Program-made: the position numbers and the translations under genes | Shown: positions 13,507 to 35,626 of the stretch, piece by piece | Position numbering within the stretch: the first letter of the stretch is position 1 | How the letters are laid out: the number at the start of each line of letters is the position of its first letter | NCBI GenBank assembly: GCA_018823905.1 | Contig: JAHJHL010000107.1 | Location: 1 to 42,063 of the forward strand | Direction: 5' to 3' | Length of the DNA stretch: 42,063 nt | Source: Alphaproteobacteria bacterium | GTDB lineage: Bacteria; Pseudomonadota; Alphaproteobacteria; Sphingomonadales; Sphingomonadaceae | The notes under the pieces: model-generated | The model's input: the letters and a program-made list of their open reading frames with translations, nothing else | Told to the model about the DNA's origin: nothing | The model's database searches: none

Positions 13507-13512
13507 ACCGGG

Positions 13513-13538
13513 GCGGCGGCCTCGGAGGAGGTCGCCGC
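13513..13538 (+). terminator. Hairpin after TonB receptor gene
   Basis: GCGGCG-G-CCTC pairs with GAGG-T-CGCCGC around a four-base loop just after the receptor stop. There is no T-run, so it may only reduce read-through into the downstream operon. Confidence 0.4.
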
Positions 13539-13623
13539 CTGCCGCTCCCCGCGCCGTGGTCAAATCGCACGATCGATGCCGCGACCTCCGCCGACCACCT
13601 GATTGAGATAGGTTTGACGTTCG

Positions 13624-15666: not shown

Positions 15667-15721
15667 CGCAGCGATGGCTGGATCGAGAAGAAAGCGGGAT
15701 TGGGATGGAAGGGCAGGGCAT

Positions 15722-17044: not shown

Positions 17045-17087
17045 AGCTGGGGAAGCGGTTTGGATGACAAGATTTGCGGAGACGATC

Positions 17088-18746: not shown

Positions 18747-18806
18747 AGCGGACGTCGCAAATTGGTGGCCCGATCCATAGTCTGAGAAAATAACAGGGGA
18801 GACGAC

Positions 18807-19874
18807 ATGCGCCAATGGGCGGGGCTTGCAGCAGCGGCAATGGCAGTCGCGCTTACCGCATGTGCGCCCACCGGGGGCGGTGCGAAGACTTTGAGCCCAG
18901 CGACCGCGCAGAACAGCGCGATGCGCGATCTGCTCGATTATGCGCGCCGTCAGAACAGCACCGGGTTTGTTGTGGTCCGGGGAGGACGGACCATGGTAGA
19001 AGAAAATTGGCCAGCCCCCGAAGACCCGATGTTTGCGATTTTTCGCTATGGCCAGACAGGCAGCGGCGCATTGCTCGAGGACGTGGCGTCGCAGCAGAAA
19101 AGTTTCATCGCCATGCTGATGGCGGTGGCCGCCGACAAAGCGCTGATCAATATCGACAGACCGGTCAGCGACTATATCGGTGCGGGCTGGTCAAAAGCGA
19201 CCGCCGAGCAGGAAAAGCGGATCCGGGTGATCCATATCCTGCAGATGAATTCAGGCCTCGACGAAAGATTCGCCTACGCCGCTCCAGCGGGTACGCGATT
19301 CTTGTACAATACCCCCGTATATGCCGTCTCGAAACAAATTCTGATCAGCGCGAGCAAGCTATCGCTCGAGCAGCTCACGCATGACTGGCTGACCGCACCT
19401 GCGGGCATGACCGAAACCGATTGGCGTCAGCGACCTGCCGCACTTGCCGGTGTCGGCAACAATACGGCGCTGGTCACGTCGCCGCGGGACACAGCGCGCT
19501 TCGGACAGATGATCCTGAGTGGCGGCGTGGCGCCGAATGGGACGCGGATCGTTTCGGCCGACGGCCTGAAAGCTTTATTCGCTCCCTCGCCGACCAATGC
19601 CGCTTATGGGCGGCTGTGGTGGCTCAACGGCGGCGGGGAGTATGTCCGCGTAGATGGGCGGCGCGACAGTGGCCCTTTGATACCGGCGGCCCCCGCCGAC
19701 GTGGTTGCAGCGTTCGGTTTTCTCGACCGCCGCCTTTACGTTGTGCCCAGCCTTGATCTGGTGGTGGTGCGGACCGGCGCCGATGCACCGGACGCCGATT
19801 TCGACCAGCAGTTGTGGCTGCGCCTCAATCGGGCTCTGGACAGTGATCTCCGCGCCGCAGGAGAAACGCGATGA
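18807..19874 (+). CDS. Serine hydrolase, class C beta-lactamase/esterase family, lipoprotein
   Basis: A 355-residue protein of the beta-lactamase/penicillin-binding-like fold (PF00144 group, esterase EstB-like). The signal peptide ends in a lipobox, LTAC, so it is probably a lipoprotein. The catalytic SxxK is SQQK (near residue 95), followed by the tyrosine motif region FLYNTPVY in place of Y-x-N. The third motif is not obvious: a segment around AAFGFLDRRLYVV takes its place. Substrate is unknown; family members include D-aminopeptidases, esterases and 6-aminohexanoate-oligomer hydrolases. GGGGAGACGAC precedes the ATG. Its stop overlaps the start of the next gene by 4 bp (ATGA), indicating coupled translation. 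Confidence 0.87.
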   Translation: MRQWAGLAAAAMAVALTACAPTGGGAKTLSPATAQNSAMRDLLDYARRQNSTGFVVVRGGRTMVEENWPAPEDPMFAIFRYGQTGSGALLEDVASQQKSFIAMLMAVAADKALINIDRPVSDYIGAGWSKATAEQEKRIRVIHILQMNSGLDERFAYAAPAGTRFLYNTPVYAVSKQILISASKLSLEQLTHDWLTAPAGMTETDWRQRPAALAGVGNNTALVTSPRDTARFGQMILSGGVAPNGTRIVSADGLKALFAPSPTNAAYGRLWWLNGGGEYVRVDGRRDSGPLIPAAPADVVAAFGFLDRRLYVVPSLDLVVVRTGADAPDADFDQQLWLRLNRALDSDLRAAGETR

Positions 19875-20635
19875 CTGAGCTGATCGACCGGCGGTCATTT
19901 GCCGCCATGGGGCTGGCGGGTAGCGCAGCTTTGCTTTCGAGCGATGCGCGGGGCGAATCGCCAACTGAACGTACCGGAAGTCGTGGGGGCAAGACGACGC
20001 ATGTCACGATCATGTTGTATCCCGGCACGACCATGCTCGACTGGGTCGGCCCCTATGAGGCGCTGCATCGCGTCGAAGGCGTTGAACTCGTTCTGGCGGG
20101 CAAGACAACCGAGTGGATGAAGAGCGACAGCGGGATCGTCGATTACAAGGCCAATATCGCATTCGACGCAATCGATCGAACCGATGTGCTGATCGTGCCG
20201 GGCGGCGCCCAGGGCGTCATGGCGGCGGCGAATGATCCGATCACCGCCGACTGGTTGAGGCGGATCGATCGCACCGCGATCTACACCGTCGGTATTTGCA
20301 CCGGATCGTTGCTGCTCGCGCATCTTGGCCTGTTGAAGGACAAGCGGGCGACGACCTATTGGAAGTTCTCCAATATGCTGCGCGGCGCCGGAGCGACCTT
20401 TGTCCCCGAACGCTGGGTGCGCGACGGCAAATATTGGACGTCGGCCGGGGTCTCGGCGGGCATCGACGCGACCTTGGCGTTGATCGCCGATCTTTACGGC
20501 CCAAAACGCGCGATGATGGCGCAACTCGCCATCGAATATGATCCGCATCCGCCCTTCGATGCGGGCTCGGTGCGGACGGCTCCCTCCGAAGTGATCGAGG
20601 CACTTGGCGGGGTGCTGGCGCCCCGCCCGCAATAG
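19871..20635 (+). CDS. Tat-exported DJ-1/PfpI-family protein (isonitrile-hydratase-like)
   Basis: A 254-residue protein of the DJ-1/PfpI superfamily. The core motif GICTGSLLLAHLGLL places the nucleophile-elbow cysteine at residue 143, and PGGAQGVMAAANDP and SAGVSAGIDATLALI match isonitrile-hydratase-like (InhA) members and the ligand domain of some AraC regulators. Unlike cytosolic relatives it starts with a twin-arginine signal (DRRSFAAMGLAGSAALL), implying folded export to the periplasm. It is translationally coupled to the serine hydrolase gene and closes the operon. The reaction is unknown; hydration of an isonitrile or a glyoxalase/deglycase-like role are possibilities. Confidence 0.87.
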   Translation: MTELIDRRSFAAMGLAGSAALLSSDARGESPTERTGSRGGKTTHVTIMLYPGTTMLDWVGPYEALHRVEGVELVLAGKTTEWMKSDSGIVDYKANIAFDAIDRTDVLIVPGGAQGVMAAANDPITADWLRRIDRTAIYTVGICTGSLLLAHLGLLKDKRATTYWKFSNMLRGAGATFVPERWVRDGKYWTSAGVSAGIDATLALIADLYGPKRAMMAQLAIEYDPHPPFDAGSVRTAPSEVIEALGGVLAPRPQ

Positions 20636-20850
20636 GACATCGGCAGCGGCTACAGGTCGCGTAATTCGTCTGACCTGCAATCGCCGGATTGCTTCGGTGG
20701 TTGCGACCGGAGCCGCAGCGCGAGCAATGATCGCGGCCGAATTGCGGCGAATGCGGGCGAAGTCTCAGCGGAAAGTATGGAAGATCGCCCACGCGTTTCG
20801 GGTCTCGTGTATGGCTTCATAAAATACATTCACACGCGCGATAGTGAATA
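20636..20850. other. Intergenic stretch without recognised gene
   Basis: The gap after the DJ-1-like gene carries an open frame of about 70 codons (20604-20822) rich in Arg and Ala with no motif, signal peptide or ribosome-binding site; I do not count it as a gene. The last 80 bp of the gap hold the promoter and operator listed separately. Confidence 0.4.
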
Positions 20851-20878
20851 TTGACATTTGTATCTGACGCGGCATAAC
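20851..20878 (+). promoter_or_regulatory. Predicted sigma-70 promoter of the second TonB receptor
   Basis: A full-consensus -35 box TTGACA (20851-20856) is followed after 16 bp by CATAAC (20873-20878), a four-of-six match to the -10 box. The palindromic operator at 20877-20890 overlaps the end of the -10 box, a position suited to repression. Confidence 0.5.
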
Positions 20879-20890
20879 TCACCCTTGAGT
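20877..20890. promoter_or_regulatory. Palindromic operator, site 1 of a putative TetR regulon
   Basis: ACTCACCCTTGAGT lies within the dyad AACTCA-CCCT-TGAGTT. It matches the site at 27218-27231 at 12 of 14 bases. It is 38 bp upstream of the receptor start and overlaps the predicted -10 box. Confidence 0.6.
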
Positions 20891-20928
20891 TGGCGACGAA
20901 GAGCGCCGATCTGGAGGGAGAGTATTTT

Positions 20929-23208
20929 ATGAAGGCTCAGCTTTTTGCGTCCGCCTCGGCGGTCGCCTTGTTCGCGATGCCCGTTTCCGCGCAGGCCCAA
21001 TCGGCCGACGTTTCCCCATCCGCCGATGCGGATGCGCAGGATCAGAAACGCGATGCCAACGATATTGTCGTGACCGCCACACGTCGAACCGAGCGGCTTC
21101 AGGACGTGCCGCTCAGCGTCACCGCGTTCGGCCAGGAAGAGCTCGATGACCTCGGCATTGTCGGCTTTGAGGGCATCGCGCAAAATACGCCCGGCATCGT
21201 GGTCAACCGTCCGACCCAGAATTTCAACAATTTCACCGCGCGCGGTATCAATACCAACGGCTATTCGGCGGGGCTGCAAAGCGCTGTTGCCATCTATGTC
21301 GACGAACTCCCGATTTCGGCGAACGGCAATTCGACGATCCTCGACCCCAATCTTTATGACGTCGAGCGCGTCGAATTTCTGCGCGGACCGCAGGGGACGC
21401 TGTTCGGGTCGAACTCGCTCGCCGGGGCGATGCGCATTATCACGAAGAGCCCCGACCTCGACGATTTCGAGGCGTCGGCGAGCGTCGACATTGGCCTGAC
21501 GGGTTCAAGCTCGGTGCGCCAACGTTATAATGCGATGGTCAATGTCCCGATTATGAAGGATGAAATCGGGCTGCGCGTCACCGGCTATTATCGCAACGAA
21601 GATGGTTGGGTCGATAATATCGGTACCGGCGTCAAGGATGCGAACAGTCTCGAAGCCTATGGCGGCCGCGCTATCCTGCTGCTCCAGCCGAGCGACCGGA
21701 TGAAGGTGAAGCTGCTCGCATCTTATGAAAACAGCAAACCGGCGGATTCGGGGCTGACGAACCCGTTGCTCGGCAATTTCGTCCGTCGCTCCGATCGGCC
21801 CGATCTGTTCCAGGGCAAGCTGACCAACTTCAATGTCACCGTCAATTATGAGTTTGATTTTGCCGAACTGATCAGTTCGACGACGCTGTCGGACTATGAC
21901 GCGTCGTTCTACGTCGATCTGGCCGGCACCTTTGCGCAGGCCTTTCCCTTCGCGCTCGATGCCTATGGCTATGACGATCTGTTCGTGCAGGAAACGCGGC
22001 TCGTCTCACGCCATGATGGACCGTTCGAATGGGTCGCTGGCTTTTTCTATTACGACAAGCGCCGCACCGTCGATTTTGCCTATCGTTCGTCTCCGGAGTT
22101 TCTTGCAGCACGTCGTCTGACCGGGCTGCCCGACGAATATTATCAGCGTTTCAACAGCTATACCGACCAGACCGAAATCGCTGGCTTTGGCGAGGCCACG
22201 TTCCGCTTCAGCGATCGCTTCTGGGTCACGGGCGGGCTGCGCTATGGCAGTACCGAGGTGCAAAGCTTTACCCGCGGTGGCGGGTATAACAGCAATTATC
22301 TGACGGCGGCCTTGTTCGGCTTGTCGAACATTCCCCTCACCATCACCCCGATCAACTATGCCGCCGGCCTGAAGGTCAAGGACGATCGCATGTCGTGGAA
22401 GGGCAGCGTCTCTTTCAAGCCGAGCGACAGCCTGACCACCTATGCGACGATCTCGACCGGTTTCCGTACCCCGGTCGTCAACGCGCGGGCGGGGCTGGCC
22501 AGCACGATCAATCCCAATGATATCATCATTCCAGAGGGCGCAAAATCGGACAGCGTCACCAACTATGAATTTGGTCTCAAGGGGCGCTGGCTGAATGGCG
22601 ACCTGACCGCCAATTTCGCCGCCTATTACATCGACTGGAAAGACATTCAGGTTCAGGCCAACCGGGTGTCGGATTCGATCCAGTTCGCGACGAACATCGG
22701 CGGCGCGGAAAGCTATGGTCTGGAATATGAAATCATTGCCCGACCAGTGCAGGGGCTCAGCCTCGCGCTCAACGGGTCGTTCAACCGGGCCAAGGTGACC
22801 GATCTGTCTCCGATCGAAGCGGCGATCTCGGGCGCCGAGATCGGCACGCGTTTGGCATCGCCGAAGTTCCAGGGGTCGGGCACGCTGCGCTACGACTTCG
22901 GAATCGGCGAGGGCAAGACGGCCTATGCGGCGGTCAATGTGTCGCACGCCGGTTCCTTTCCGAACCAGTTCCCCAATGTGCCGGGCAACCCCAATGCGAA
23001 CAGCCCGACCTATGATTTTACCGAGGCATGGACCAATGTGAACCTCTACGTCGGGGCAAAGCTCGGCGCGATCGATCTGGGCGCCTATGTCGAAAATGTC
23101 TTTAACGACAAGTCGATCACTTATGTTCACCCGGAGGCGTTCCTCGACGGACGTTATGCCCGGTTGCGTCCGCGCACGGTCGGCGTCCGCGCCAATTATC
23201 GTTTCTGA
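20929..23208 (+). CDS. TonB-dependent outer-membrane receptor
   Basis: A 759-residue receptor has a signal peptide (cleavage near SAQAQ), a TonB-box-like NDIVVTATRR followed by the common TERLQDVPLSVTAF, a plug domain with RGINTNGYSAGLQ and VEFLRGPQGTLFGSN, and a barrel ending in VGVRANYRF. Its type (short N-terminus, LQDVPLSV) is the abundant sphingomonad group linked to hydrophobic or aromatic substrates. GGAGGGAG is well placed before the ATG at 20929. It starts the run receptor, carboxylesterase, acyl-CoA ligase, TetR with gaps of 28 bp or less, so it is very probably the uptake part of that pathway and under the palindromic operator just upstream. Confidence 0.95.
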   Translation: MKAQLFASASAVALFAMPVSAQAQSADVSPSADADAQDQKRDANDIVVTATRRTERLQDVPLSVTAFGQEELDDLGIVGFEGIAQNTPGIVVNRPTQNFNNFTARGINTNGYSAGLQSAVAIYVDELPISANGNSTILDPNLYDVERVEFLRGPQGTLFGSNSLAGAMRIITKSPDLDDFEASASVDIGLTGSSSVRQRYNAMVNVPIMKDEIGLRVTGYYRNEDGWVDNIGTGVKDANSLEAYGGRAILLLQPSDRMKVKLLASYENSKPADSGLTNPLLGNFVRRSDRPDLFQGKLTNFNVTVNYEFDFAELISSTTLSDYDASFYVDLAGTFAQAFPFALDAYGYDDLFVQETRLVSRHDGPFEWVAGFFYYDKRRTVDFAYRSSPEFLAARRLTGLPDEYYQRFNSYTDQTEIAGFGEATFRFSDRFWVTGGLRYGSTEVQSFTRGGGYNSNYLTAALFGLSNIPLTITPINYAAGLKVKDDRMSWKGSVSFKPSDSLTTYATISTGFRTPVVNARAGLASTINPNDIIIPEGAKSDSVTNYEFGLKGRWLNGDLTANFAAYYIDWKDIQVQANRVSDSIQFATNIGGAESYGLEYEIIARPVQGLSLALNGSFNRAKVTDLSPIEAAISGAEIGTRLASPKFQGSGTLRYDFGIGEGKTAYAAVNVSHAGSFPNQFPNVPGNPNANSPTYDFTEAWTNVNLYVGAKLGAIDLGAYVENVFNDKSITYVHPEAFLDGRYARLRPRTVGVRANYRF

Positions 23209-23236
23209 TGAGCGGCATGGTTGAAAGGGCGAGGGG

Positions 23237-24874
23237 ATGATCCGGCGCTGGAAATATATTGCCCTAGCCCTGGCCATGGTCGCGCCCGCACCAGCGCTCG
23301 CGAACGATGATATGGTGGTCGAGGCACCGGCCGGGAGTCTGCGTGGCAGCGACGATCGCGGCGTGCGGGTCTTCAAAGGCATTCCCTATGCCGCGCCTCC
23401 CGTCGGCGAGCGCCGTTGGCGTCCGCCGGCGGAGCCCGCGGCGTGGGATGGCGTGCGCGACGCGACGAAGTTCGGCGCGGCGTGCATGCAGCCCAAGCCC
23501 CGCGTCGGCAATATCTATGCCGGGGATATGCCGACGATGAGCGAGGATTGCCTTTCGCTCAATATCTGGGCGCCGAAGGATGCGCGCGGCGCGCCGGTGT
23601 TCCTGTGGATCCACGGCGGCTCGCTGACCGCCGGATCGGGCGCGGAGCCGCTCTATGACGGAAGCGCGCTGGCAAAGCGCGGGCTGGTCGTCGTTTCGAT
23701 CAACTATCGTCTCGGCGCGCTGGGCTATCTGGCGCACCCCGAGCTGAGCGCGGAATCGCCCGATCGCGTGTCGGGCAACTACGGGCTGCTCGACCAGATC
23801 GCGGCGCTCGAGTGGGTCAAACGCAACATCGGTGCCTTTGGCGGCGATGACGGCAATGTCACCATCGCCGGGGAATCGGCGGGCGCGCTCAGCGTCATGT
23901 ATCTGATGGCAGCGCCGAAGGCGCGCGGGCTGTTCCACAAGGCGATCGCGCAGAGCGCCTATATGGTATCGGCATCCGGATTGAGTGCCGCGATCAACGG
24001 CATGGTCCCCGCCGAGGAGCAGGGCAAGGGTCTGGCCGCGAAGCTTGGCGCGACCGACCTCGCGGCGCTGCGCGCGATGCCGGCGGAAGAAATCGCATCC
24101 AAGGCGCCGGCAACGGGCTTTTTCCCGTTCCCGACCATCGACGGAAAGGTCGTGCCGCGTCAGCTGGTCGAGACGTTCGACAAGGGCGAGCAGGCGCCCG
24201 TCCCGATCCTCGCGGGATTTAACAGCGGAGAAATTCGTTCGCTGCGGTTCCTGCTCCCCAAGGCGCCTGCCGATGCCGCGGCCTATGAGGCGGCGATCCG
24301 CGCCGGTTATGGCGAATTCGCCAACCTGTTTCTCGCGCGCTATCCGGCGAAGACGATCGACGAAAGCATGCTCGCCGCGACCCGCGACGCGATGTACGGC
24401 TGGACGTCGGAGCGGCTGGTGTCGAACCAGTCGGCGCTGGGTCAGCGATCCTATTATTATCTGTTCGACCATGGTTATCCGGCGACGCAGGAATGGAATC
24501 TTCACGCCTTTCACGCTGCCGAGCTTCCTTATGTCTTTGGAACCGCGACGCGCACGCCGCCGCTCTGGCCAAAGATCCCCGACACACTAGCCGAAAAGAA
24601 ATTGTCGGATGCGATGACGGATTATTGGGCGAGCTTCGCGGCGACGGGATCCCCGCGCGCCAAGGACCAGCCTGACTGGCCCGACTATGCCGACAAGCGG
24701 GGCGTCATGCGTTTCGCCGGTGAGCCGCGGGCAGGGCACAATCTGTTCCCTGGCGTGTCGGCGCTGCACGAAGCGGTGGTCTGCCGCCGCCGCGCTGCGG
24801 GTGACATTCCGTGGAACTGGAATATTGGCGTCATATCGCCCCCGCTGCCGCCGAAAGTCGCGGGATGCCAATGA
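23237..24874 (+). CDS. Secreted type B carboxylesterase
   Basis: A 545-residue carboxylesterase of the COesterase family (PF00135). The signal peptide ends at APALA, so the enzyme is probably periplasmic. FKGIPYAAPPVGERRW near the N-terminus, DCLSLNIW and the oxyanion loop IHGGSLTAGSG are typical. The nucleophile is in GESAGALS (near residue 213), the acid probably Glu in FNSGEIRS (near 331), and the histidine in FHAAELPYVFG (near 425). It hydrolyses carboxylic esters to acid and alcohol; the acid could feed the ligase encoded next. Its stop overlaps the ligase start by 4 bp (ATGA), tying the two products together. Confidence 0.93.
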   Translation: MIRRWKYIALALAMVAPAPALANDDMVVEAPAGSLRGSDDRGVRVFKGIPYAAPPVGERRWRPPAEPAAWDGVRDATKFGAACMQPKPRVGNIYAGDMPTMSEDCLSLNIWAPKDARGAPVFLWIHGGSLTAGSGAEPLYDGSALAKRGLVVVSINYRLGALGYLAHPELSAESPDRVSGNYGLLDQIAALEWVKRNIGAFGGDDGNVTIAGESAGALSVMYLMAAPKARGLFHKAIAQSAYMVSASGLSAAINGMVPAEEQGKGLAAKLGATDLAALRAMPAEEIASKAPATGFFPFPTIDGKVVPRQLVETFDKGEQAPVPILAGFNSGEIRSLRFLLPKAPADAAAYEAAIRAGYGEFANLFLARYPAKTIDESMLAATRDAMYGWTSERLVSNQSALGQRSYYYLFDHGYPATQEWNLHAFHAAELPYVFGTATRTPPLWPKIPDTLAEKKLSDAMTDYWASFAATGSPRAKDQPDWPDYADKRGVMRFAGEPRAGHNLFPGVSALHEAVVCRRRAAGDIPWNWNIGVISPPLPPKVAGCQ

Positions 24875-26430
24875 TCGACGGATCGATGCAGACCTATGCG
24901 TTGACGCTCGACAAATTCCTCTCCCACGCCGCGAAATGGCATTCCGACGCCGAAGTGGTGTCGGCGGGAGCGGACGGGGCGATCCGGCGCATCGGCTATG
25001 CCGCGCTGCGCGAGCGCTCGCTGCGCGTCTCGGGCGTGCTGGCGCGTCTCGGGATCGCACAGGGCGACCGTGTCGCGACACTCGCCTGGAATACGCAGGG
25101 CCATGTCGAGGCGTGGTACGGGATCATGGGCATGGGGGCGATCTGCCACACGCTCAACCCGCGCCTGACACCTGCGCAGCTCGGCTCGATGCTGTCGCAG
25201 TCCGAAGCCGCGGTTCTGCTCGTCAGCCCCGACCTGTTGCCGCTGGCCGAGGACGCGGCGCGCAATCTTGCTTCGGTTCGCCACATCCTGCTGCTCGACG
25301 CCGAGGACGAAAAACAGGCGCTCGATCGGCTCATCGCGTCGTCTGAAGCCGATGCGGTCTGGGGCCAGTTCGACGAGGTGAGCCCATCGGGACTCTGTTT
25401 CACTTCGGGCAGTACCGGGGCGCCGAAGGGGGTCACCTATACGCATCGCGGCTGCTTCCTGCACACCATGCGCCAGTTGCAGGCCGATGTGCTCGGCATC
25501 ACCGCGCGCGATGCGGTGATGCCCGTCGTCCCGATGTTTCACGCCAATGCGTGGGGCATTCCCTTCACCGCGCCAGCGGTCGGGGCGAAGCTGGTGCTTC
25601 CCGGCCGCCAAAGTGACGGCGCGCATCTGGCGCGGCTGATCCGCAGCGAAGGGGTGACCGCCGCGGTCGGGGTTCCGACCGTCTGGCTGGGCCTTGTCGA
25701 ACATCTGGAGGCTGAAGGCGGTGAGGTGCCGTCGCTCGAACGCATCCTCGTCGGCGGATCGTCGATGCCGCCGGCGTTGATGGACCGGATCGAGAAGCGG
25801 CTGGGGGTCGAGGTACAGACGAGCTGGGGCATGACCGAATTGTCGCCGCTCGGCACCGCGGCGCTCCCGGGCGATCCGGCGCGCAAACCTTCGCTGTCCG
25901 GACGCCCCGCGATGGGGATCGACTTGTTGCTGACCGATGCCGACGGCGCGGCGCTTGCCGAACAGCGCGGCGGGGAAGGGCATTTGCGTGTGCGCGGCGG
26001 CTCCGTCGTCGAGCGCTATTTCGGGCAGGCGGAGCCCGCGACCGACGCCGATGGCTGGTTCGATACCGGTGACCTCGCGCGGATCGACAGGTCGGGCAAT
26101 CTGACGATCACGGGCCGCGCCAAGGATCTGATCAAATCGGGCGGTGAGTGGATCAATCCGGCCGAGATCGAAGCGATCGTCGGCGCCTTGCCGCAAGTGT
26201 CGCTCGCCGCGGTGATCGGGCGATCGGATCCCAAATGGGGCGAGCGCCCGATCCTCCTAGTCGAAGCCTGCGATCCGTCGGTCAGCGACGCCGAATTGCT
26301 CGCGCCGCTCAGCGGCAGGGTGGCGTCCTGGTGGGTTCCCGATGCGATCGTTCGCCTCGACGTCATGCCACTGGCGCCCACCGGCAAGATCGACAAATTG
26401 CAATTGCGGGCCGAATACGGACAGGTGTAG
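24871..26430 (+). CDS. AMP-forming acyl-CoA ligase (fatty/aryl acid type)
   Basis: A 519-residue ANL-superfamily ligase: phosphate loop TSGSTGAPKGVTYTHRG at about residues 178-194, MFHANAWGIPF, adenylate region SWGMTELSPLG, WFDTGDLARID, GRAKDLIKSGGEWINPAEIE and the C-terminal lysine in PTGKIDKLQLR. These features are those of medium/long-chain fatty acid ligases (FadD3/AlkK-like). It would turn the free acid from the esterase into a CoA thioester in the cytoplasm. The ATG at 24871 overlaps the esterase stop; an ATG at 24865 is possible. The TetR gene begins 5 bp after its stop, so all four genes form one operon. Confidence 0.93.
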   Translation: MIDGSMQTYALTLDKFLSHAAKWHSDAEVVSAGADGAIRRIGYAALRERSLRVSGVLARLGIAQGDRVATLAWNTQGHVEAWYGIMGMGAICHTLNPRLTPAQLGSMLSQSEAAVLLVSPDLLPLAEDAARNLASVRHILLLDAEDEKQALDRLIASSEADAVWGQFDEVSPSGLCFTSGSTGAPKGVTYTHRGCFLHTMRQLQADVLGITARDAVMPVVPMFHANAWGIPFTAPAVGAKLVLPGRQSDGAHLARLIRSEGVTAAVGVPTVWLGLVEHLEAEGGEVPSLERILVGGSSMPPALMDRIEKRLGVEVQTSWGMTELSPLGTAALPGDPARKPSLSGRPAMGIDLLLTDADGAALAEQRGGEGHLRVRGGSVVERYFGQAEPATDADGWFDTGDLARIDRSGNLTITGRAKDLIKSGGEWINPAEIEAIVGALPQVSLAAVIGRSDPKWGERPILLVEACDPSVSDAELLAPLSGRVASWWVPDAIVRLDVMPLAPTGKIDKLQLRAEYGQV

Positions 26431-26435
26431 GCCAA

Positions 26436-27176
26436 ATGCGGGTCGCGGCGGCAGAAACGATCGATCAGAAGGAAGCGAATTTGGCGTCGAAGGCGAAGAC
26501 TTTAGCGAAGCGGCCGACCAAGGCGGAACAGCGCGCCGAGATGATGGAGCAGATTCTCGACACGGCCGAGTTGCTGTTCTCGCAGCATGGCTTCCACGGC
26601 GTGACGCTGAAGGACGTCGCCAAGCAGGTCGGCGTCCATCACACGTTGCTCAACTATTATTTCGACGACAAGCGAACGCTGTTCGACGCGGTCTTTGCGC
26701 GCCGCGCCGTGGTGACGATCGACAAGCGGATGCAGGCGCTCGACGATTATGAGCGTGCGGCGGGTGACAATCCGACCGTAGAGGGAGCGCTGCACGCTTT
26801 CCTCGATACCGACCTCGATCTCTATATCCAGGGCGGCGAGGGCTGGAAAAATTATGGCGCGTTCGGCGCGCAGGCGTCGAACAGTCCCGAAGGCGCCGAA
26901 TTCATGGACAAATATTTCGATCCCGTCGTGCTCCGCCTGATCGCGATATTGAAGAAGGCGCTGCCCGATGCCGCAGAAGAGGATATTTTCTGGGGCTATC
27001 ATTTCGTCACCGGGGCGCTGATGCTGACGCTGGCCCGCACCGGACGCATCGACAAATTGTCCCACGGACTCTGCCGGTCGGACGATTATGAAGCGGTGAA
27101 GGCGCGCATGGCGCGCTTCATGGCCGCGGGCTTTCGCGACATCTGCAATCAGCGCCGACAAGATCGCGACGGCTGA
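26436..27176 (+). CDS. TetR-family transcriptional regulator
   Basis: A 246-residue TetR-type repressor. The N-terminal helix-turn-helix region (ILDTAELLFSQHGFHGVTL, then VAKQVGVHHTLLNYYFDDKR) lies at about residues 40-87, and the C-terminal ligand domain follows. A basic 30-residue N-terminal tail precedes the HTH. It is the last gene of the receptor-esterase-ligase operon, 5 bp after the ligase, and 86 bp ahead of the SDR gene whose promoter region carries a TetR-style palindrome. I infer that it represses its own operon and the SDR/transporter operon, with a pathway acid or acyl-CoA as inducer, as for many TetR regulators of acyl-CoA pathways. Confidence 0.93.
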   Translation: MRVAAAETIDQKEANLASKAKTLAKRPTKAEQRAEMMEQILDTAELLFSQHGFHGVTLKDVAKQVGVHHTLLNYYFDDKRTLFDAVFARRAVVTIDKRMQALDDYERAAGDNPTVEGALHAFLDTDLDLYIQGGEGWKNYGAFGAQASNSPEGAEFMDKYFDPVVLRLIAILKKALPDAAEEDIFWGYHFVTGALMLTLARTGRIDKLSHGLCRSDDYEAVKARMARFMAAGFRDICNQRRQDRDG

Positions 27177-27217
27177 ATTCGCCGCGACAAAGCGGCATCG
27201 GGTCAATCATTTAATTC

Positions 27218-27231
27218 ACTCACCAGTGAGT
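27218..27231. promoter_or_regulatory. Palindromic operator, site 2 of a putative TetR regulon
   Basis: ACTCAC-CA-GTGAGT is a perfect 6-2-6 dyad set in an AT-rich stretch (TTAATTC on the left, TATTAATA on the right). It lies 32 bp before the SDR start codon and 42 bp after the TetR stop. A site of the same sequence type precedes the TonB receptor operon. Confidence 0.65.
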
Positions 27232-27262
27232 TATTAATATTTAAGTCGAGGAGACGACGGGA

Positions 27263-28156
27263 ATGGATTTATCGGGACGGGTTGCGATCGTCACGGGGGC
27301 CGGCGGGGGACTGGGCCGGTCGCATGCCTTGTTGCTAGCGCGCCATGGCGTGCGGGTGATGGTCAACGACATGCAGGGCGCGGCGGCCGAAGCCGTCGCT
27401 GAAGAGATTGTCGCGGCGGGCGGCGATGCGCTCGCCGCAGCGGCGTCGGTCACCGACGAGGCAGCGGTCGCTAAGATGGTCGATGCGGCGACCCGCGCAT
27501 GGGGCGGGGTCGACATCCTGATCAACAACGCGGGCATTCTGCGCGACAAGAGCTTTGCGAAGATGGATCTTGCCGACTTCCGCCTCGTCGTCGATGTCCA
27601 TCTGATGGGCGCCGCGGTCTGTTCGAAGGCGGTGTGGGACCAGATGCGCGCGCGGCGTTTCGGCCGGATCGTGATGACCACATCGTCATCGGGGCTCTAC
27701 GGCAATTTCGGACAGGCCAATTATGGCGCGGCGAAGATGGCACTCGTCGGGTTGATGCAGACGCTCGCGATCGAAGGCGAAAAGCACAATGTCCGCGTCA
27801 ATTGCCTGGCCCCGACCGCGGCAACCGCAATGACCGAAGGCGTGCTTGCCCCCGACGCGCTGGCCGAGCTCGCGCCCGACGCCGTGAGTCCCGGGCTGCT
27901 CGCGCTGGTCGGCGACGATGCGCCGACGCGCGCGATCCTTTGTGCCGGCGCCGGCCATTTCGCCGTGGCCAATATCACGCTGACCGAAGGCGCCTTCATC
28001 GGGCGCGGCGACGATGCGGGCGCGCGCGTCGCGGCCGAATGGGAGCGCGTGACCGACCGCCGCGACGAGATCGTTCCCGCCTATGGCTTCACGCAGGCCG
28101 AACGCGAGCTCGCGAACGCCGGCTTCACCGCGCCGACGATGGCGGTCGCACACTGA
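27263..28156 (+). CDS. SDR-family (3R)-hydroxyacyl-CoA dehydrogenase-like oxidoreductase
   Basis: A 297-residue short-chain dehydrogenase with VTGAGGGLGRSHALLLARHG at the N-terminus, NNAGILRDKSFAKM, the catalytic Ser in TTSSSGLYGNFGQ and Tyr/Lys in YGAAKMA. The pattern (GAGxGLGRxHA, LRDKSF, FGQANY) is that of the dehydrogenase unit of type 2 peroxisomal multifunctional enzyme (17-beta-HSD4 group), which oxidises 3-hydroxyacyl-CoA in beta-oxidation. It also carries a C-terminal tail of about 60 residues beyond the core. GAGGAGACGACGGGA precedes the ATG. It would act downstream of the acyl-CoA ligase of the neighbouring operon. The SDR at 8103-8960 is a paralogue. Confidence 0.92.
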   Translation: MDLSGRVAIVTGAGGGLGRSHALLLARHGVRVMVNDMQGAAAEAVAEEIVAAGGDALAAAASVTDEAAVAKMVDAATRAWGGVDILINNAGILRDKSFAKMDLADFRLVVDVHLMGAAVCSKAVWDQMRARRFGRIVMTTSSSGLYGNFGQANYGAAKMALVGLMQTLAIEGEKHNVRVNCLAPTAATAMTEGVLAPDALAELAPDAVSPGLLALVGDDAPTRAILCAGAGHFAVANITLTEGAFIGRGDDAGARVAAEWERVTDRRDEIVPAYGFTQAERELANAGFTAPTMAVAH

Positions 28157-28228
28157 ATTCCCCCGGGGCGTGGCGGACGGGCCGGACAAGAGCCCGCCGC
28201 CGCTGCCGGGTCATCATGGGAGAGAGAC

Positions 28229-29896
28229 ATGGCTAGTGAAACAGATGCCTCGCCGACGGCGGCGGAGAAGCGAAAGACCGAACGGCGCGTAATTATCGGC
28301 TCATCGCTGGGCACGGTGTTCGAATGGTATGATTTCTATCTCTATGGTCTGCTCGCCAGCGCGCTGTCGCTTCACTTCTTTTCGGGGGTGAACGAGACCA
28401 CCGGGTTCATCTTGGCGCTGATGGCCTTTGCCGCCGGGTTCGCCATACGCCCTTTCGGGGCGCTGGTGTTCGGGCGGATCGGCGACATCGTCGGGCGGAA
28501 GAACACTTTCCTCGTCACCATGGCGATCATGGGCCTGTCGACCTTCGCCGTCGGTTTCCTGCCCGGATATGACAGCATCGGGATTGCGGCGCCGATCATC
28601 CTCATGGCCCTGCGTTTGCTGCAGGGTCTGGCGATTGGCGGCGAATATGGCGGCGCGGCAGTTTATGTCGCCGAACATGCCCCGCCCGGAAAACGCGGTT
28701 TCTATACCAGCTTTATCCAGACCACGGCGATGCTGGGCCTGATCCTCGCCTCGTCGCTCGTCGTCGGGCTCCGCACGGTGATGGATGCCGAAACCTTTCT
28801 TGCCTGGGGCTGGCGCATTCCCTTCATCTTCTCGATCGTGCTGCTCACGGTCACGCTGTGGATCCGCTTCCAGCTGGAAGAAAGCCCGGTTTTTCAGCGG
28901 ATGAAGTCGCAGGGCGCGACGTCGAAAGCACCGCTGACCGAAGCGTTCGGCGAGTGGAAAAATCTGAAGATCGTGCTGATCGCGCTCTTTGGCGCGGTGG
29001 CGGGGCAGGCGGTGATCGGCTTTGCCGCGCATCTCTATCCGCTCTTTTTTCTCGAACGCATCGCGCGCGTCGACGGCGCGACCGCAAACTTCCTTGTCGC
29101 CACCGCGCTGATGTTGATCATCCCCTGCTTTGTCTTCTTCGGCTGGCTCAGCGACAAGATCGGGCGCAAGCCGATCATGATGACCGCCTGCGTCATCGCG
29201 CTCTTCGTCTATTTCCCGCTCTACAAGGCACTGGTCGGCGCCGCGAACCCGGCAATGGCCGCGGCGGTCGAGCGCGCACCGGTCACGGTCGTCGCGCATG
29301 GCGGCGAATGCTCGTTCCAGTTCGATCCCATCGGCAAAAACACGTTCGACCGGACGAGCTGCGATATTGCCAAATCCTATCTGGCAAAAGCCGGGGTCAA
29401 CTATGCCAACATCGACGCGCCGGCAGGAACGGCGGCGTCGGTACAAATTGGAGACACCGTGCTGCCCGTTCCGGACCCGTCGGGGCTAGGCGCGGAAGGT
29501 CGAGCTGCGGCAGTCGCGGGGTTCGCGGCGGCGGCAAAGACCGAACTCGACGCGGCGGGTTATCCCGACAAGGCCGACCCGGCACAGGTGAACAAGGTCA
29601 AGGTGATCATGATCCTCTGCGTCTTCGGCGTGCTGGCAACGATGGTCTATGGCCCGCTCGCGGCGCTGCTCGTCGAACTGTTTCCAGCGCGCATCCGCTA
29701 CACCTCGCTGTCGCTGCCCTACCATATCGGCAATGGCTGGATCGGCGGTTTCATGCCCACGATCGGCTTTGCGATGGTCGCGGCGACGGGTAATATCTAT
29801 CAGGGGCTGTGGTATGCGGTGGTGATCGCGGGGATCACCGCCGTTGTGGGCATCCTCTTCCTGCCCGAAACCTACAAGCGGGACATCGAAGCCTGA
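28229..29896 (+). CDS. MHS-type MFS transporter with large periplasmic insert
   Basis: A 555-residue carrier of the metabolite:H+ symporter group (ProP/ShiA/KgtP-like). It shows SSLGTVFEWYDFYLYG in TM1, RPFGALVFGRIGDIVGRK in the loop after TM2, and GWLSDKIGRKPIMM in the loop between TM8 and TM9. MHS carriers are usually near 430-450 residues. The excess is one block at about residues 340-452, between TM9 (ACVIALFVYFPLYKAL) and TM10 (VIMILCVFGVLATMV). By topology this loop faces the periplasm; it contains two cysteines (GECSFQF and TSCDIAK). It is co-directional with the SDR gene 72 bp upstream and probably imports an acid substrate of the pathway. Confidence 0.9.
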   Translation: MASETDASPTAAEKRKTERRVIIGSSLGTVFEWYDFYLYGLLASALSLHFFSGVNETTGFILALMAFAAGFAIRPFGALVFGRIGDIVGRKNTFLVTMAIMGLSTFAVGFLPGYDSIGIAAPIILMALRLLQGLAIGGEYGGAAVYVAEHAPPGKRGFYTSFIQTTAMLGLILASSLVVGLRTVMDAETFLAWGWRIPFIFSIVLLTVTLWIRFQLEESPVFQRMKSQGATSKAPLTEAFGEWKNLKIVLIALFGAVAGQAVIGFAAHLYPLFFLERIARVDGATANFLVATALMLIIPCFVFFGWLSDKIGRKPIMMTACVIALFVYFPLYKALVGAANPAMAAAVERAPVTVVAHGGECSFQFDPIGKNTFDRTSCDIAKSYLAKAGVNYANIDAPAGTAASVQIGDTVLPVPDPSGLGAEGRAAAVAGFAAAAKTELDAAGYPDKADPAQVNKVKVIMILCVFGVLATMVYGPLAALLVELFPARIRYTSLSLPYHIGNGWIGGFMPTIGFAMVAATGNIYQGLWYAVVIAGITAVVGILFLPETYKRDIEA

Positions 29897-29933
29897 TTGC
29901 TATGGTGAACGGCCGCCGCGCGTTGATCCGAAT

Positions 29934-31217
29934 CTAGCGCGCGGCGACGATCAGCAATTCGCGGAACGCTGCCGTTGTAGTGGCAACGGCGGCGGCGTCG
30001 ATGCAGCGCGCGTCATCACCCTCGACATGGTGGAAGCGATGAACGCCAAAGATGCCCGCGACCGAAGGATAGCCGGCAGCAATGATCGCGGTGAGCTCAC
30101 CCGCCGATAATTTGTCGCTGGGGTAGGGCGTCTCGAGCCCCGCGAGGCCTGCAAACAGGCGGCGTGCGATCGGAAGCAATGGCGGGCTGACGACCAGATA
30201 GCGTTGCGAATCGGTTCCACCGATCGGAGACAGCCCGAATAGCCCCTCATGCCAGTCGCGCGCCGCGAGATTGGCGCCGAGGTGGAGCCAGAAATGCGTC
30301 TGGGCAGGCTTCGGCGCGACCGCCTTCAACGCCTCTTCGGCGCCGAGATTCTCATATTCATGTCCGCTGTTGCACAGGAAGGCGAGGTCGTGATCGGGAA
30401 ACAGCTTTGGCGCTTCGCGCGCGAGGTGGAGCCACGCCGCGATCCCGCCGCCGCGCTCGCCGGCACAATCAGTCCAGCCTGATCGCGGCGTCGAGACGAC
30501 GAGCCACCGGCCTTTGCTGCGGTCGATTCGGCCGATGACGTTAAAGGCGGGTCGTTGTCCACCGCGTCCCGCGAGTGTGACGGTTGTGAGGGCGTGCTGC
30601 ATCGCGGCGTCGAGAAATGGGGCAGCATCGGCGGGCGCGAGCAATCCCACCGGTCCTGCAAACATCGGCGCCCGACCGTCAGCGTTCAGCGCGATGATCT
30701 GGCCGGTCGGGCCATTGGTGATGATGATCGCGGCCTTTGCGCCTGCCGCAAAAGCGGCATCGACCGGACCGCGGACGGGCTTCGCCAACGCGGAAGACCA
30801 GCGGCTATAGGGTAGGTCGATGAGCGCAATGGCGCCCGAAAGTGGCGCGTCGGCGCTGCCGTGGGCGTCGATACGCACCAGCGGCCCACTGACATCGTGC
30901 GCCGGAATGATGATCGGTTGCGGCGCTAGCGGCGCGCGTGCGGTACCCAAAATAATCGTGCAATCGTCGGCATCGAACCAGGGGACCGAGATCGCAGGTT
31001 TATCGACGTCATAGCCAGCGCGCGAGAGCTCATTGGCCAGCCAATGACCGCAGCCATTGTCGCCCGCGCCTCCCGACCTCTTGTTGCCAAAGCTGATATA
31101 GGTTGCAAGATCGGCCGCAATCGTGCCGCTGGACTCCGCTCCACGCCCCGATGCCGCCGCGGCAATTGGCAACGCGGTCGCCCCGGCCAGAAAACCGCGC
31201 CTGCTGGGTCGTGCCAT
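29934..31217 (-). CDS. Tat-exported M28-family peptidase-like protein
   Basis: A 427-residue protein begins with a twin-arginine signal (SRRGFLAGATALPIAAAASG) after the ATG at 31217, which has GAGGAGAC upstream. The rest resembles M28 zinc aminopeptidases with a PA-like insert (about residues 95-220). The metal-site motifs are not standard: the HxDS strand reads STPRSGW, the GADDNASG motif reads CAGERGGG, and the EE motif is replaced by NSGHEYENLG; GTDS and a late His (FHHVEGD) remain. It may bind metal differently or be inactive. It converges on the MHS gene and has a copy of the putative TetR operator about 70 bp upstream, tying it to the ester pathway. Confidence 0.78.
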   Translation of the reverse strand: MARPSRRGFLAGATALPIAAAASGRGAESSGTIAADLATYISFGNKRSGGAGDNGCGHWLANELSRAGYDVDKPAISVPWFDADDCTIILGTARAPLAPQPIIIPAHDVSGPLVRIDAHGSADAPLSGAIALIDLPYSRWSSALAKPVRGPVDAAFAAGAKAAIIITNGPTGQIIALNADGRAPMFAGPVGLLAPADAAPFLDAAMQHALTTVTLAGRGGQRPAFNVIGRIDRSKGRWLVVSTPRSGWTDCAGERGGGIAAWLHLAREAPKLFPDHDLAFLCNSGHEYENLGAEEALKAVAPKPAQTHFWLHLGANLAARDWHEGLFGLSPIGGTDSQRYLVVSPPLLPIARRLFAGLAGLETPYPSDKLSAGELTAIIAAGYPSVAGIFGVHRFHHVEGDDARCIDAAAVATTTAAFRELLIVAAR

Positions 31218-31285
31218 GATGTCTCCTCTCACGTGATCGCGGCCTCCCGCTCCATCTAGGTAATGCGCCGAGGTCCATTTTGCTC

Positions 31286-31299
31286 ACTCACAAGAGAGG
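31286..31299. promoter_or_regulatory. Operator-like site 3, upstream of the M28-like gene
   Basis: ACTCACAAGAGAGG matches the perfect dyad at 27218-27231 at 11 of 14 bases. One half-site (ACTCAC) is exact and the other is degenerate. It lies 69 bp before the start codon of the leftward M28-like gene. Weaker than sites 1 and 2. Confidence 0.4.
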
Positions 31300-31524
31300 G
31301 TAAAACTGTCGCGAAACAATGGCAAGCGAGGTGGCAGAGAAATTTGGCGGCAATGCGCCTCAATTCGGTCGTTCAGCCCTCTCGCTAATGAGCCTGAAAG
31401 CCGTCGTTCTTTCAGCCGCCGGTTGTCGAGACTTCCCGCTTAGTCAGACCGGCTACAAGCAATTCTTCTACGAACTCCGATATAGCTGCAACCTACCGCT
31501 TGCGGGGTTTCGCTGCGCGCTCAC
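31300..31524. other. Intergenic stretch without recognised gene
   Basis: No gene is recognised between the M28-like promoter region and the ATPase remnant. A 7-bp dyad (CTGAAAG at 31394-31400, CTTTCAG at 31409-31415) could be a weak hairpin downstream of the remnant. Base composition is slightly less GC-rich than the flanks. This stretch may be part of the same rearranged segment. Confidence 0.4.
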
Positions 31525-31989
31525 TCAATACACCGTCTGCAGTCGGACACCTGTCCGGCCATTGCCATCGAGTTCGATAACCCGCAGCGGCGCGACGCGG
31601 CCGCCGGGGGTCTCGACCGGTCCCACCCGGCCGAACTTTTCGATTAGGTGGCGCGCGAGAGGCTTGCTGGCGGTAGTAACTACCAAGTTGAGCGACATGC
31701 TGTTCTCAAGCACTGTTGCCCGGAAGATATCGAGCAGCCCGACGCGATTGAGGTCGTCGAGATGCGTTACCGGCTCGTCAAGGAAGAATGTTCCACGAAG
31801 ACTTCGCGCTCGCGCCAGAAATAAGGCTAGGGCCAAATCCTGGCGCTGCCCTTGGCTGAAGTCCTTGCCCGGGTTCAACTCCTGACCGCCGACATCCGCC
31901 AGCCACCGCAGCGGATCGTCGACCTGGCCGAGCTTGATTCTATCAAAGACCGGATTGGCGTGCATGCGTGCGAACAGTGGGTTCACCAC
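31525..31989 (-). pseudogene. 3' remnant of an ABC/SMC-type ATPase gene
   Basis: The 154 residues are the C-terminal end of an SMC/RecF/SbcC-like ATPase. They include the ABC signature-like FSQGQRQDLALALFLARA, a Walker B FFLDEPVTHLDDLNR and a switch-like LNLVVTTASKPLARHL. The Walker A part and the coiled-coil arms are absent. The frame runs to about 31990, where it meets a DUF3422 remnant on the other strand, and no upstream exon-like continuation is seen. Isolated GTG codons at 31984-31989 could start translation, but a lone C-terminal ATPase lobe would not be functional. What the complete protein did cannot be told from this part. Confidence 0.72.
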
Positions 31990-31997
31990 TCGGCCGA

Positions 31998-32669
31998 GAT
32001 CGCAACCTGGCGCTCCTCGGTTTGCAGCTCGTCCAGCAAAAGGCCGGCGAGCTTACCATGCTCGAAAGTGAACTTGCCGCCGCGACCCTGGCGATGCGCG
32101 ATTCCAATGCTGCGCCGGCATTGCTCGACCAGTTGATAGAGCTGGCGAGTCAAGTCACCGCGCTTTCGGCAGCGACCGCCTTTCGCCTCGGTGCAACGGC
32201 GGCCTACGCCGATATCGCGATGCAGCGGCTCGATGCGCTTGCCGAGGCACCGATACCTGGCTTTCAGTCGCTCGCAGATTTTACCGAGCGGCGGCTAGTT
32301 CCGGCTGCGCGCACCTGTCGCTCCTTCGCGGCCCGCATCGAGCATTTGGCCGAACGCATCGAGCGCGCGACGGCGCAATTGCGCACGCGCATTGACCTGG
32401 AAATCCAGCAGCAGAACAGCGCGATGCTTGTATCGATGGAACGCAGCGCGGCGCGCCAGCTCCATTTGCAGCATGTCGTCGAGGGATTGTCGGTCGTCGC
32501 GGTCAGCTATTATTCGGTCGGGCTATTTTCGTACCTTGCGAAAGGCACTAGCCATTTGGGCCTATCGTTCGATCCCATATTCCTGACAGCGACCGCCACG
32601 CTGCCGATTGCCGCGCTCGTCTGGCTGTATCTGCGGCACAAGACGAAGGGCGCGCCTCCAGAAAAATGA
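31998..32669 (+). pseudogene. 3' remnant of a DUF3422 membrane-protein gene
   Basis: About 223 residues from DRNLALL to the stop match the C-terminal half of DUF3422 proteins: the coiled-coil-like ESELAAATLAM, PGFQSLADFTERRLVPA, ARTCRSFAARIEHLAERIER, LLVSMERSAARQLHLQ-like helix, and two terminal membrane segments (SVVAVSYYSVGLFSYLAKG and PIFLTATATLPIAALVWLYL). Full-length family members are around 420-440 residues, so roughly the first half is missing. Homology begins abruptly near 31998, next to the start of the oppositely oriented ATPase remnant. A downstream ATG could still give a short membrane protein, but I treat it as broken. Confidence 0.75.
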
Positions 32670-32672
32670 GCC

Positions 32673-32783
32673 CTAAAGCGTCGCGTCTTCGTCGGCGGGC
32701 GAATGGAATTCGTGCCACACACCATTCAAAATGCCGAAGCCAACCGCGAGACCGAGTCCCAGAACCCACGTAAAATACCACAT
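32673..32783 (-). CDS. cydX: Cytochrome bd oxidase small subunit CydX
   Basis: A 36-residue protein starting MWYFTWVLGLGLAVGFGI and continuing through NGVWHEF to an acidic tail (PADEDATL). It is a single membrane helix with the MWYF-W-LG-x-A start and the helix-end W-x-E typical of CydX/CbdX (YbgT), which stabilises haem in the CydAB oxidase. GGAGG lies 8 bp before the ATG, and the gene starts 15 bp after the cydB stop, the canonical cydABX order. Its stop lies 3 bp from the stop of the convergent DUF3422 remnant. At this length it is easily missed by gene callers. Confidence 0.93.
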   Translation of the reverse strand: MWYFTWVLGLGLAVGFGILNGVWHEFHSPADEDATL

Positions 32784-32798
32784 TGCGTCTGCCTCCGG

Positions 32799-33947: not shown

Positions 33948-33958
33948 TTCGGTCCTCC

Positions 33959-35539: not shown

Positions 35540-35602
35540 AGCGTCACTCCTGGAACAGCGACTCGGCGGCGCACCGCTTGGCTTGCGGCTACGTCAATTA
35601 CT

Positions 35603-35626
35603 GAATATAGGAATGTATGAATATTA
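35603..35626 (+). repeat. Three 8-bp phased GAAT repeats at the cydD start
   Basis: GAATATAG, GAATGTAT and GAATATTA follow each other at 35603, 35611 and 35619. They lie in the short cydA/cydD divergent gap and overlap the most upstream cydD start codon (35617). They could be a binding site for a regulator controlling both cyd operons. The 8-bp period is seen directly; the function is a guess. Confidence 0.4.

What the first reader, a model, noticed from the sequence alone, without database searches (positions are those of the whole stretch)
20877..31299. A single palindrome marks three promoters: a previously unlisted TetR regulon for an ester pathway
ACTCACCAGTGAGT (27218-27231) before the SDR gene and ACTCACCCTTGAGT (20877-20890) before the TonB receptor match at 12 of 14 bases; a third copy (31286-31299) before the M28-like gene matches at 11 of 14. 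The first overlaps a predicted -10 box. A TetR gene lies at 26436-27176 among them. This ties receptor, esterase, ligase, SDR, MHS carrier and the exported M28-like protein into one control unit of at least seven genes that carries its own regulator.
Basis: partly seen in the sequence, partly recalled or inferred. Interest (0 to 1): 0.78.

Follow-up and report, generated by a model that had tools for sequence, protein, structure and literature searches.

The report
TetR regulon for ester uptake
A small DNA palindrome, conserved across many bacteria, very probably lets one regulator protein switch on a set of genes that take up and break down some still unidentified ester; it looks like an undescribed local genetic switch of a familiar type.

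Summary
The idea is largely right; the evidence given for it is partly wrong. Loci of TetR relatives (Sphingopyxis, Sphingomonas, Phenylobacterium, Nitrospirillum, Luteimonas, Alloalcanivorax and others) share a 22-bp operator, ATTMACTMNCNNGNKAGTKAAT: directly behind TetR in 60 of 100 loci, 0 of 100 inside TetR. The third site (31282-31303) is weak, but 14 of 17 distinct relatives with the M28-like gene have a good operator there. At up to 3 mismatches the motif occurs in this genome only at the first two places. In 199 family genomes it tracks the TetR: 13 of 16 with a close TetR, 8 of 183 others. Best reading: an autoregulated local repressor of TonB-EST-LIG-TetR, SDR-MHS and the M28-like gene, for uptake, hydrolysis and CoA activation of an ester-bound acid. 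New observation: receptor-side operators are conserved as imperfect (purine at position 7) and fixed 1 nt from TTGAC. No binding is shown; the substrate is unknown.

The parts
20828..20849 (+).
   Evidence: Matrix score 21.6, 23.3 with a matrix from distant relatives only. An operator exactly 1 nt from TTGAC is found in 72 of 97 relatives' loci. One of two 22-mer sites in the genome at up to 3 mismatches.
20851..20856 (+). TTGACA, probable -35 box of the receptor promoter, 1 nt after operator A
   Evidence: Sequence; spacing of exactly 1 nt in 71 of the 74 relatives' sites with TTGAC within 6 nt. A consensus scan found no complete sigma-70 promoter.
20877..20890 (+).
   Evidence: Score 4.8, 2.2; 3 or more mismatches at this place in all 17 relatives tested.
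20930..23208 (+). TonB-dependent receptor
   Evidence: Pfam barrel 4.5e-34, plug 3.1e-18; the start MKAQLFASAS is shared with several relatives (DNA).
23237..24874 (+). Type-B carboxylesterase (EST), apparent signal peptide by eye
   Evidence: Pfam COesterase 1.6e-106; PDB best 8wdm 1.1e-85, fumonisin B1 esterase 8s6d 1.7e-78.
24811..26430 (+). Acyl-CoA ligase (LIG)
   Evidence: AMP-binding 1.3e-68; PDB 6ihk 1.5e-132.
26436..27176 (+). TetR-family regulator (TetR_C_30), last gene of the receptor operon
   Evidence: relatives; recognition region VHHTLLNYYF strongly conserved in 97 hits of at least 65% identity.
27214..27235 (+).
   Evidence: Score 32.3, 28.8; such a site lies behind TetR in 60 of 100 loci.
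27263..28156 (+). SDR, resembling the (3R)-hydroxyacyl-CoA dehydrogenase part of MFE-2
   Evidence: PDB 2et6 1.1e-110; adh_short 1.7e-48.
28229..29896 (+). MFS carrier of the metabolite:H+ symporter type (MHS)
   Evidence: TIGR00883 343 bits, below its 443-bit cut-off; Pfam Sugar_tr, MFS_1.
29934..31217 (-). M28-like protein with apparent Tat signal (MARPSRRGFLAG)
   Evidence: Pfam M28 E 0.018, below cut-off; PA domain 1.9e-4, also below cut-off; relatives in 18 of 100 loci, 17 distinct.
31282..31303 (-).
   Evidence: Score 10.0, 11.5; chance gives 0.23 per 42 kb at 10 or more, 0.13 at 12 or more. 14 of 17 distinct loci with the M28-like gene have a site of 17 or more before it, one has 11.1, two have none.

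Best explanation
The TetR protein (26436-27176) binds a 22-bp palindrome, ATTMACTMNCNNGNKAGTKAAT, in the promoters of its own operon (TonB-EST-LIG-TetR, operator 20828-20849), of SDR-MHS (27214-27235) and, weakly, of the exported M28-like gene (31282-31303). It most likely works as a local repressor released by a product of the pathway (free acid or its CoA thioester). The genes suggest a route: the receptor imports an ester, the type-B carboxylesterase splits it, the MFS carrier brings in the acid, the ligase makes its CoA ester, and the SDR oxidises it as a (3R)-3-hydroxyacyl-CoA-like substrate before general thiolysis. The receptor operator is conserved as a weakened palindrome, which would leave basal receptor and repressor expression (autoregulation) while the SDR operon is held more tightly. 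Shown: site conservation, position, specificity, co-occurrence with the TetR. Inferred: binding, sign of regulation, ligand, pathway order, affinity difference.
For: Site behind TetR in 60 of 100 loci at 14 or more of 20 positions; 0 of 100 for an equal stretch inside TetR; 8 of 100 in the stretch before TetR, where some loci have a divergent promoter. 175 sites of score 15 or more in 100 loci, against a mean of 1.3 (max 14) for 100 column-permuted matrices. In 97 non-duplicate loci all 167 such sites lie within 350 bp before the start of a gene of the cluster's families (TonB receptor, SDR, EST, M28-like, MHS, MFS, Liv-type binding protein, thiolase, TetR). A matrix from 76 distant loci scores the two window operators 28.8 and 23.3; no place in 8 Mb of simulated sequence reached 20. 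Own genome: 2 sites at up to 3 mismatches, control 0. 19 genomes of relatives: 37 sites at up to 2 mismatches, control 1; 36 inside the ranges fetched and one about 0.7 kb outside. 13 of 16 family genomes with a close TetR have a site, 8 of 183 others (Fisher 1.2e-12). A 28-base operator-plus-TTGAC element is found in 3 of 385 genomes of the class, one copy each, control 0; all three have a close TetR relative. Recognition region conserved in relatives, different in six paralogous hits. The operator also stands before Liv-type ABC transporter genes in 7 loci.
Against: No binding or expression data. 3 of 16 family genomes with a close TetR (G184, G062, G006) lack a site at 2 mismatches; 10 of 100 loci have no site of score 15, four of them low-identity paralogues (L065-L068). 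The third window site is weak. The receptor operator lies upstream of the -35 box at a fixed distance, which also fits an activator. Three loci (L117, L134, L142) show TetR, operator and ABC transporter but no similarity to the esterase, ligase or SDR, so the regulator is not always tied to an ester pathway. Acyl-CoA dehydrogenase-family genes recur in 6 loci and enoyl-CoA hydratase-family genes in 5, against a pure 3-hydroxyacyl route.
Confidence: 0.8

Rival explanations
1. The TetR is an activator, or both activator and repressor: at the receptor promoter it sits just upstream of the -35 box and helps polymerase; at the SDR promoter it represses.
For: Operators linked to TTGAC are at exactly 1 nt in 71 of 74 cases, across several orders; SDR-side operators have no such link.
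Against: Most TetR proteins are repressors (recalled). A fixed spacing also follows if all receptor promoters descend from one ancestor.
Confidence: 0.15
2. The shared 14-mers are chance or common promoter sequence, with no regulon.
Against: Conservation and specificity of the 22-mer.
Confidence: 0.03
3. The regulon is real, but the M28-like gene is no longer under it in this genome: operator C has decayed with the loss of the divergent second esterase.
For: Score 10.0-11.5 here against 17-25 in 14 of 17 distinct relatives; no gene like the second esterase found in the window's incomplete genome beyond EST itself at 57% and hits of 44, 45 and 36% on other contigs.
Against: It is still the third-best distinct site of the window. 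The close relative L069 keeps a 17.2 site although no second esterase was found in its locus either.
Confidence: 0.45

Closest known systems
PsrA / TetR_C_30 regulators (PsrA, NicR)
   Same: PsrA model and NicR structures are the nearest named relatives found; repressors of acyl or aromatic acid catabolism (recalled).
   Different: PsrA model 69.8 bits against a cut-off of 300; NicR E 1.9e-18. The PsrA motif as I recall it (GAAAC-N-GTTTC type) is not this one; not compared by a tool.
Regulons of FadP, LiuQ, RutR, FabR, PsrA in Proteobacteria (PMC5343134, 2016; 12 of 15 passages seen)
   Same: TetR regulons reconstructed by comparing genomes.
   Different: The passages seen list no TetR regulon for a receptor-esterase-ligase-SDR cluster.
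AtuR of acyclic terpene use (recalled, not tested)
   Same: TetR repressor of a catabolic cluster with ligase and SDR genes.
   Different: Motif and genes not compared here.
Fumonisin (fum) cluster of Sphingopyxis (recalled)
   Same: TonB receptor, permease and a type-B carboxylesterase; structure 8s6d, fumonisin B1 esterase, is the third PDB hit of EST.
   Different: Recalled to have a LysR regulator and an aminotransferase; I did not search for these.

Membership tests
TetR family | N-terminal TetR HTH domain | tested here: met
   TetR_N 1e-13, 51.2 bits, cut-off 24
TetR family | Palindromic operator near its own gene | tested here: met
   Operator-like sites before its operon and directly behind it; binding itself not tested
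TetR family | DNA binding relieved by a small ligand | not testable with these tools
   Needs biochemistry
PsrA regulators | Equivalog model score at or above cut-off | tested here: not met
   69.8 against 300 bits
Local TetR regulon | Few sites, confined to neighbouring genes | tested here: met
   2 sites in own genome at up to 3 mismatches; 36 of 37 sites in 19 genomes inside the fetched cluster, one about 0.7 kb outside. Exceptions: G110 has two sites (20.5, 19.0) beside an unlinked TonB receptor, and G160 one unlinked site
Peptidase M28 | Match above Pfam gathering score | tested here: not met
   15.2 against 21.3 bits
Peptidase M28 | Metal-binding residues of M28 | tested here: inconclusive
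   Where an M28 aminopeptidase is weakly aligned (E 0.011) this family has STPRSGW..CAGERGGG and HEY; the structure job failed
MFE-2 (3R)-hydroxyacyl-CoA dehydrogenase | Sequence similarity to the dehydrogenase domain | tested here: met
   2et6 1.1e-110, best stretch residues 2-274
MFE-2 (3R)-hydroxyacyl-CoA dehydrogenase | Activity on (3R)-hydroxyacyl-CoA | not testable with these tools
   Needs enzyme assay

The most novel reading that the evidence does not exclude
A widely transferred, self-regulating cassette for eating esters of (R)-3-hydroxy acids (for instance oligomeric or lipid-bound 3-hydroxyalkanoates): esterase, ligase and (3R)-hydroxyacyl-CoA dehydrogenase, in some loci with a thiolase nearby, and mostly without recurrent acyl-CoA dehydrogenase or hydratase genes. 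It is run by one TetR with two conserved operator grades: an imperfect one locked to the receptor -35 box, perhaps activating, and a stronger one for the enzymes, so that uptake is induced first.
Probability: 0.22. Interest if true: 0.62.

Novelty: new member of a known kind. Interest (0 to 1): 0.48.

Why it matters
It gives a precise operator, a target list and a regulator for a gene cluster found in many environmental Alpha- and Gammaproteobacteria whose substrate is unknown. The TetR and its operator could serve as a reporter to find the natural substrate. The conserved weakening of the receptor operator at one position, fixed against the -35 box in many genera, is a clean case for testing how operator imperfection is selected.

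Tried and rejected
The 14-mer as unit of search: at chance level in the window, 60 match rows in the genome at 2 mismatches against 28 for the control; replaced by the 22-mer. Other near-matches of the 14-mer in the genome: of six looked at (L003-L006, L012, L013) one, L003, scores 13.9, the others below zero. Sigma-70 promoter scan: nothing at the receptor or SDR promoter. Paper searches: six returned no paper; the others gave listings judged by title and start of abstract (15 of 22 listed); only passages of PMC5343134 were read. One search asked for one PDB code and for fumonisin esterase, so they bear little on the motif. Structure of the M28-like protein: job interrupted.

Limits: searches used all 100 loci, of which three (L050, L052, L054) duplicate L092, L118 and L135; these were left out and in the site counts. 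One search kept the best 80 of 220 relatives. Related strains are not independent. The 20 receptor promoters and 14 M28-side sites were picked because they had a matrix hit; one search counts all M28 loci. The matrix was trained on sites behind TetR, so its lower score for receptor sites is partly built in; the position-7 difference is a plain count. G390 proved 92% identical in DNA to locus L109, so it is not an independent test; genomes with the TetR but without the element were not looked for.
Full report
Observation. As 14-mers they prove little: ACTCACCNNTGAGT at up to 3 mismatches occurs 15 times in the window against 16.6 expected.

Relatives. The TetR (246 aa; TetR_N plus TetR_C_30) has many relatives in genome contigs; the best 80 of 220 were kept, at 69-95% identity (Sphingopyxis, Sphingomonas, Phenylobacterium, Caulobacter, Nitrospirillum, Reyranella, Luteimonas, Xanthomonas, Stenotrophomonas, Alloalcanivorax and others). 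In these 100 loci the perfect arms ACTCA-N4-TGAGT occur 19 times, against a mean of 0.31 (max 3) for 29 permuted half-sites. Directly behind TetR, 60 of 100 loci have a 22-bp site matching at least 14 of 20 positions of ATTCACTCACNNGTGAGTGAAT; in an equal stretch inside TetR none of 100 do (best 12), and in the stretch before TetR 8 of 100 do.

Window operators. Rebuilt from 76 distant loci (35 distinct sites) it gives 28.8, 23.3, 11.5 and 2.2; the next non-overlapping window score is 3.3, and simulated sequence gives 0.23 hits per 42 kb at 10 or more and 0.13 at 12 or more. Receptor promoters of 20 relatives with a matrix hit were written under each other; nothing like the 20877 palindrome is found at that place in the 17 tested. 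Of 17 distinct loci with the M28-like gene, 14 have a site of 17 or more before it, L080 has 11.1, L056 and L064 have none. In many relatives a second esterase is divergent from it; it is missing in the window, and the genome's best match to a relative's copy is the operon's own EST at 57%, then 44, 45 and 36% on other contigs (the assembly is 95.6% complete).

Specificity. At up to 3 mismatches the degenerate 22-mer occurs in the window's genome only at 20828 and 27214 (control 0). In 19 genomes of relatives there are 37 sites at up to 2 mismatches (control 1), 36 inside the ranges fetched and one about 0.7 kb outside. In 199 family genomes 13 of 16 with a close TetR (E up to 1e-90) have a site, against 8 of 183 others (Fisher 1.2e-12); the misses are G184, G062 and G006. 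Unlinked sites also exist in two of the 16: two beside a TonB receptor in G110, one in G160. A longer element, receptor operator plus TTGAC, occurs once in each of 3 of 385 genomes of the class, control 0: the window's own, G014, and G390, which has a 75%-identical TetR about 7 kb away, seemingly interrupted or shortened. G390 is a 92% relative of locus L109, so this is not an independent case.

Targets. In 97 non-duplicate loci all 167 sites of score 15 or more lie within 350 bp before the start of a gene of the cluster's families: a TonB receptor alone 71, SDR 55, EST and/or M28-like 15, Liv-type binding protein 7, MHS 6, the rest MFS, TetR, thiolase or two-gene cases.

Two operator grades. 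Of the 167 sites, 74 have TTGAC within 6 nt, 71 of them at exactly 1 nt. Sites at exactly 1 nt (74 at score 12 or more, in 72 of 97 loci, 56 distinct) stand before a TonB receptor in 68 cases, an MFS gene in 5, nothing recognised in 1. They carry a purine at position 7 in 54 of 56, whereas sites behind TetR (51 distinct) have T in 51 of 51; position 16 is A in all of both. The receptor palindrome is thus conserved as imperfect. Matrix scores average 21.9 and 29.4, and the site behind TetR scores higher in 47 of 53 loci with both, though the matrix was trained on that class. I infer a weaker, autoregulated operator on the operon that includes tetR. In 60 loci where SDR follows TetR, 52 have the second operator (median gap 86 nt); the 8 without have gaps of 25-56 nt (median 52), as if read through from TetR; 33 loci have no adjacent SDR.

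Regulator. In the recognition region VHHTLLNYYF nine of ten positions are kept in 95-97 of 97 hits of at least 65% identity and one in 78; six lower-identity hits have IHPALIHYYF, VSSTLIHYHF and the like. The loci of four of those (L065-L068) have no site at score 10 or more.

Pathway. EST is a type-B carboxylesterase; LIG is closest in the PDB to 6ihk, deposited as AMP-binding domain protein (recalled to be a methylthiopropionate-type CoA ligase); SDR resembles the MFE-2 (3R)-hydroxyacyl-CoA dehydrogenase. A protein family found near the cluster in 13 loci is thiolase in the four members tested, and L131 also has one. Acyl-CoA dehydrogenase-like genes recur in 6 loci and enoyl-CoA hydratase-like genes in 5 (one of each confirmed); this clustering is not a full annotation. 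The simplest, unproven reading is an ester of a 3-hydroxy acid. A GH1 glycosidase family occurs in 8 loci (two confirmed), so a glycoside ester is also possible. In 7 loci the operator stands before a Liv-type ABC transporter (domains checked for L131 and L134); those loci showed no TonB receptor, and three of them (L117, L134, L142) no esterase, ligase or SDR either. Regulator and operator stay while the transport genes change.

Verdict. It is a new member of a known kind. I saw no description of it in the open library, within the limits told in Tried and rejected.

Noticed in passing
window 29934-31217 (-); 12-sequence alignment A1: The M28-like protein is a distinct family: where M28 metal motifs would be expected it has STPRSGW..CAGERGGG (invariant in A1; L072 has CGGERGGG) and CN[ST][GA]HEY, with an apparent Tat signal; found in 17 distinct loci.
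   Followed up: partly
window 30887-32669: The divergent second esterase of relatives is missing; DNA similarity to the close relative L069 ends near 30887 (window 29001-36000 compared), and a DUF3422 gene matching only profile positions 199-413 of 418 follows.
   Followed up: partly
window 10858-20632: A second ester-type cluster lies upstream: TonB receptor, acetyl-CoA-synthetase-like ligase, MFS carrier, tannase/feruloyl esterase, beta-lactamase-like hydrolase, DJ-1; no operator of score 6 or more there.
   Followed up: no
L188:3792-3813 and 3989-4010 (genome G110): Two operator-like sites (20.5 and 19.0) stand beside another TonB-like receptor far from the tetR gene: a possible unlinked regulon member.
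   Followed up: partly
L190:10161-10182 (own genome, contig C199): A weak site (13.9), ATTGACTCACCTATGAGTGCAG, lies just before a 278-aa ORF; about what chance could give in a whole genome.
   Followed up: partly
L085:13502-14791, L075:13457-14782: A GH1 glycosidase gene follows MHS in some Sphingopyxis clusters, hinting at a glycosylated substrate.
   Followed up: no
L091, L094, L102, L105, L122, L143: Luteimonas, Xanthomonas, Stenotrophomonas and Pseudoxanthomonas loci carry the TetR at 71-80% identity to the window, suggesting transfer between classes; no tree was built.
   Followed up: no
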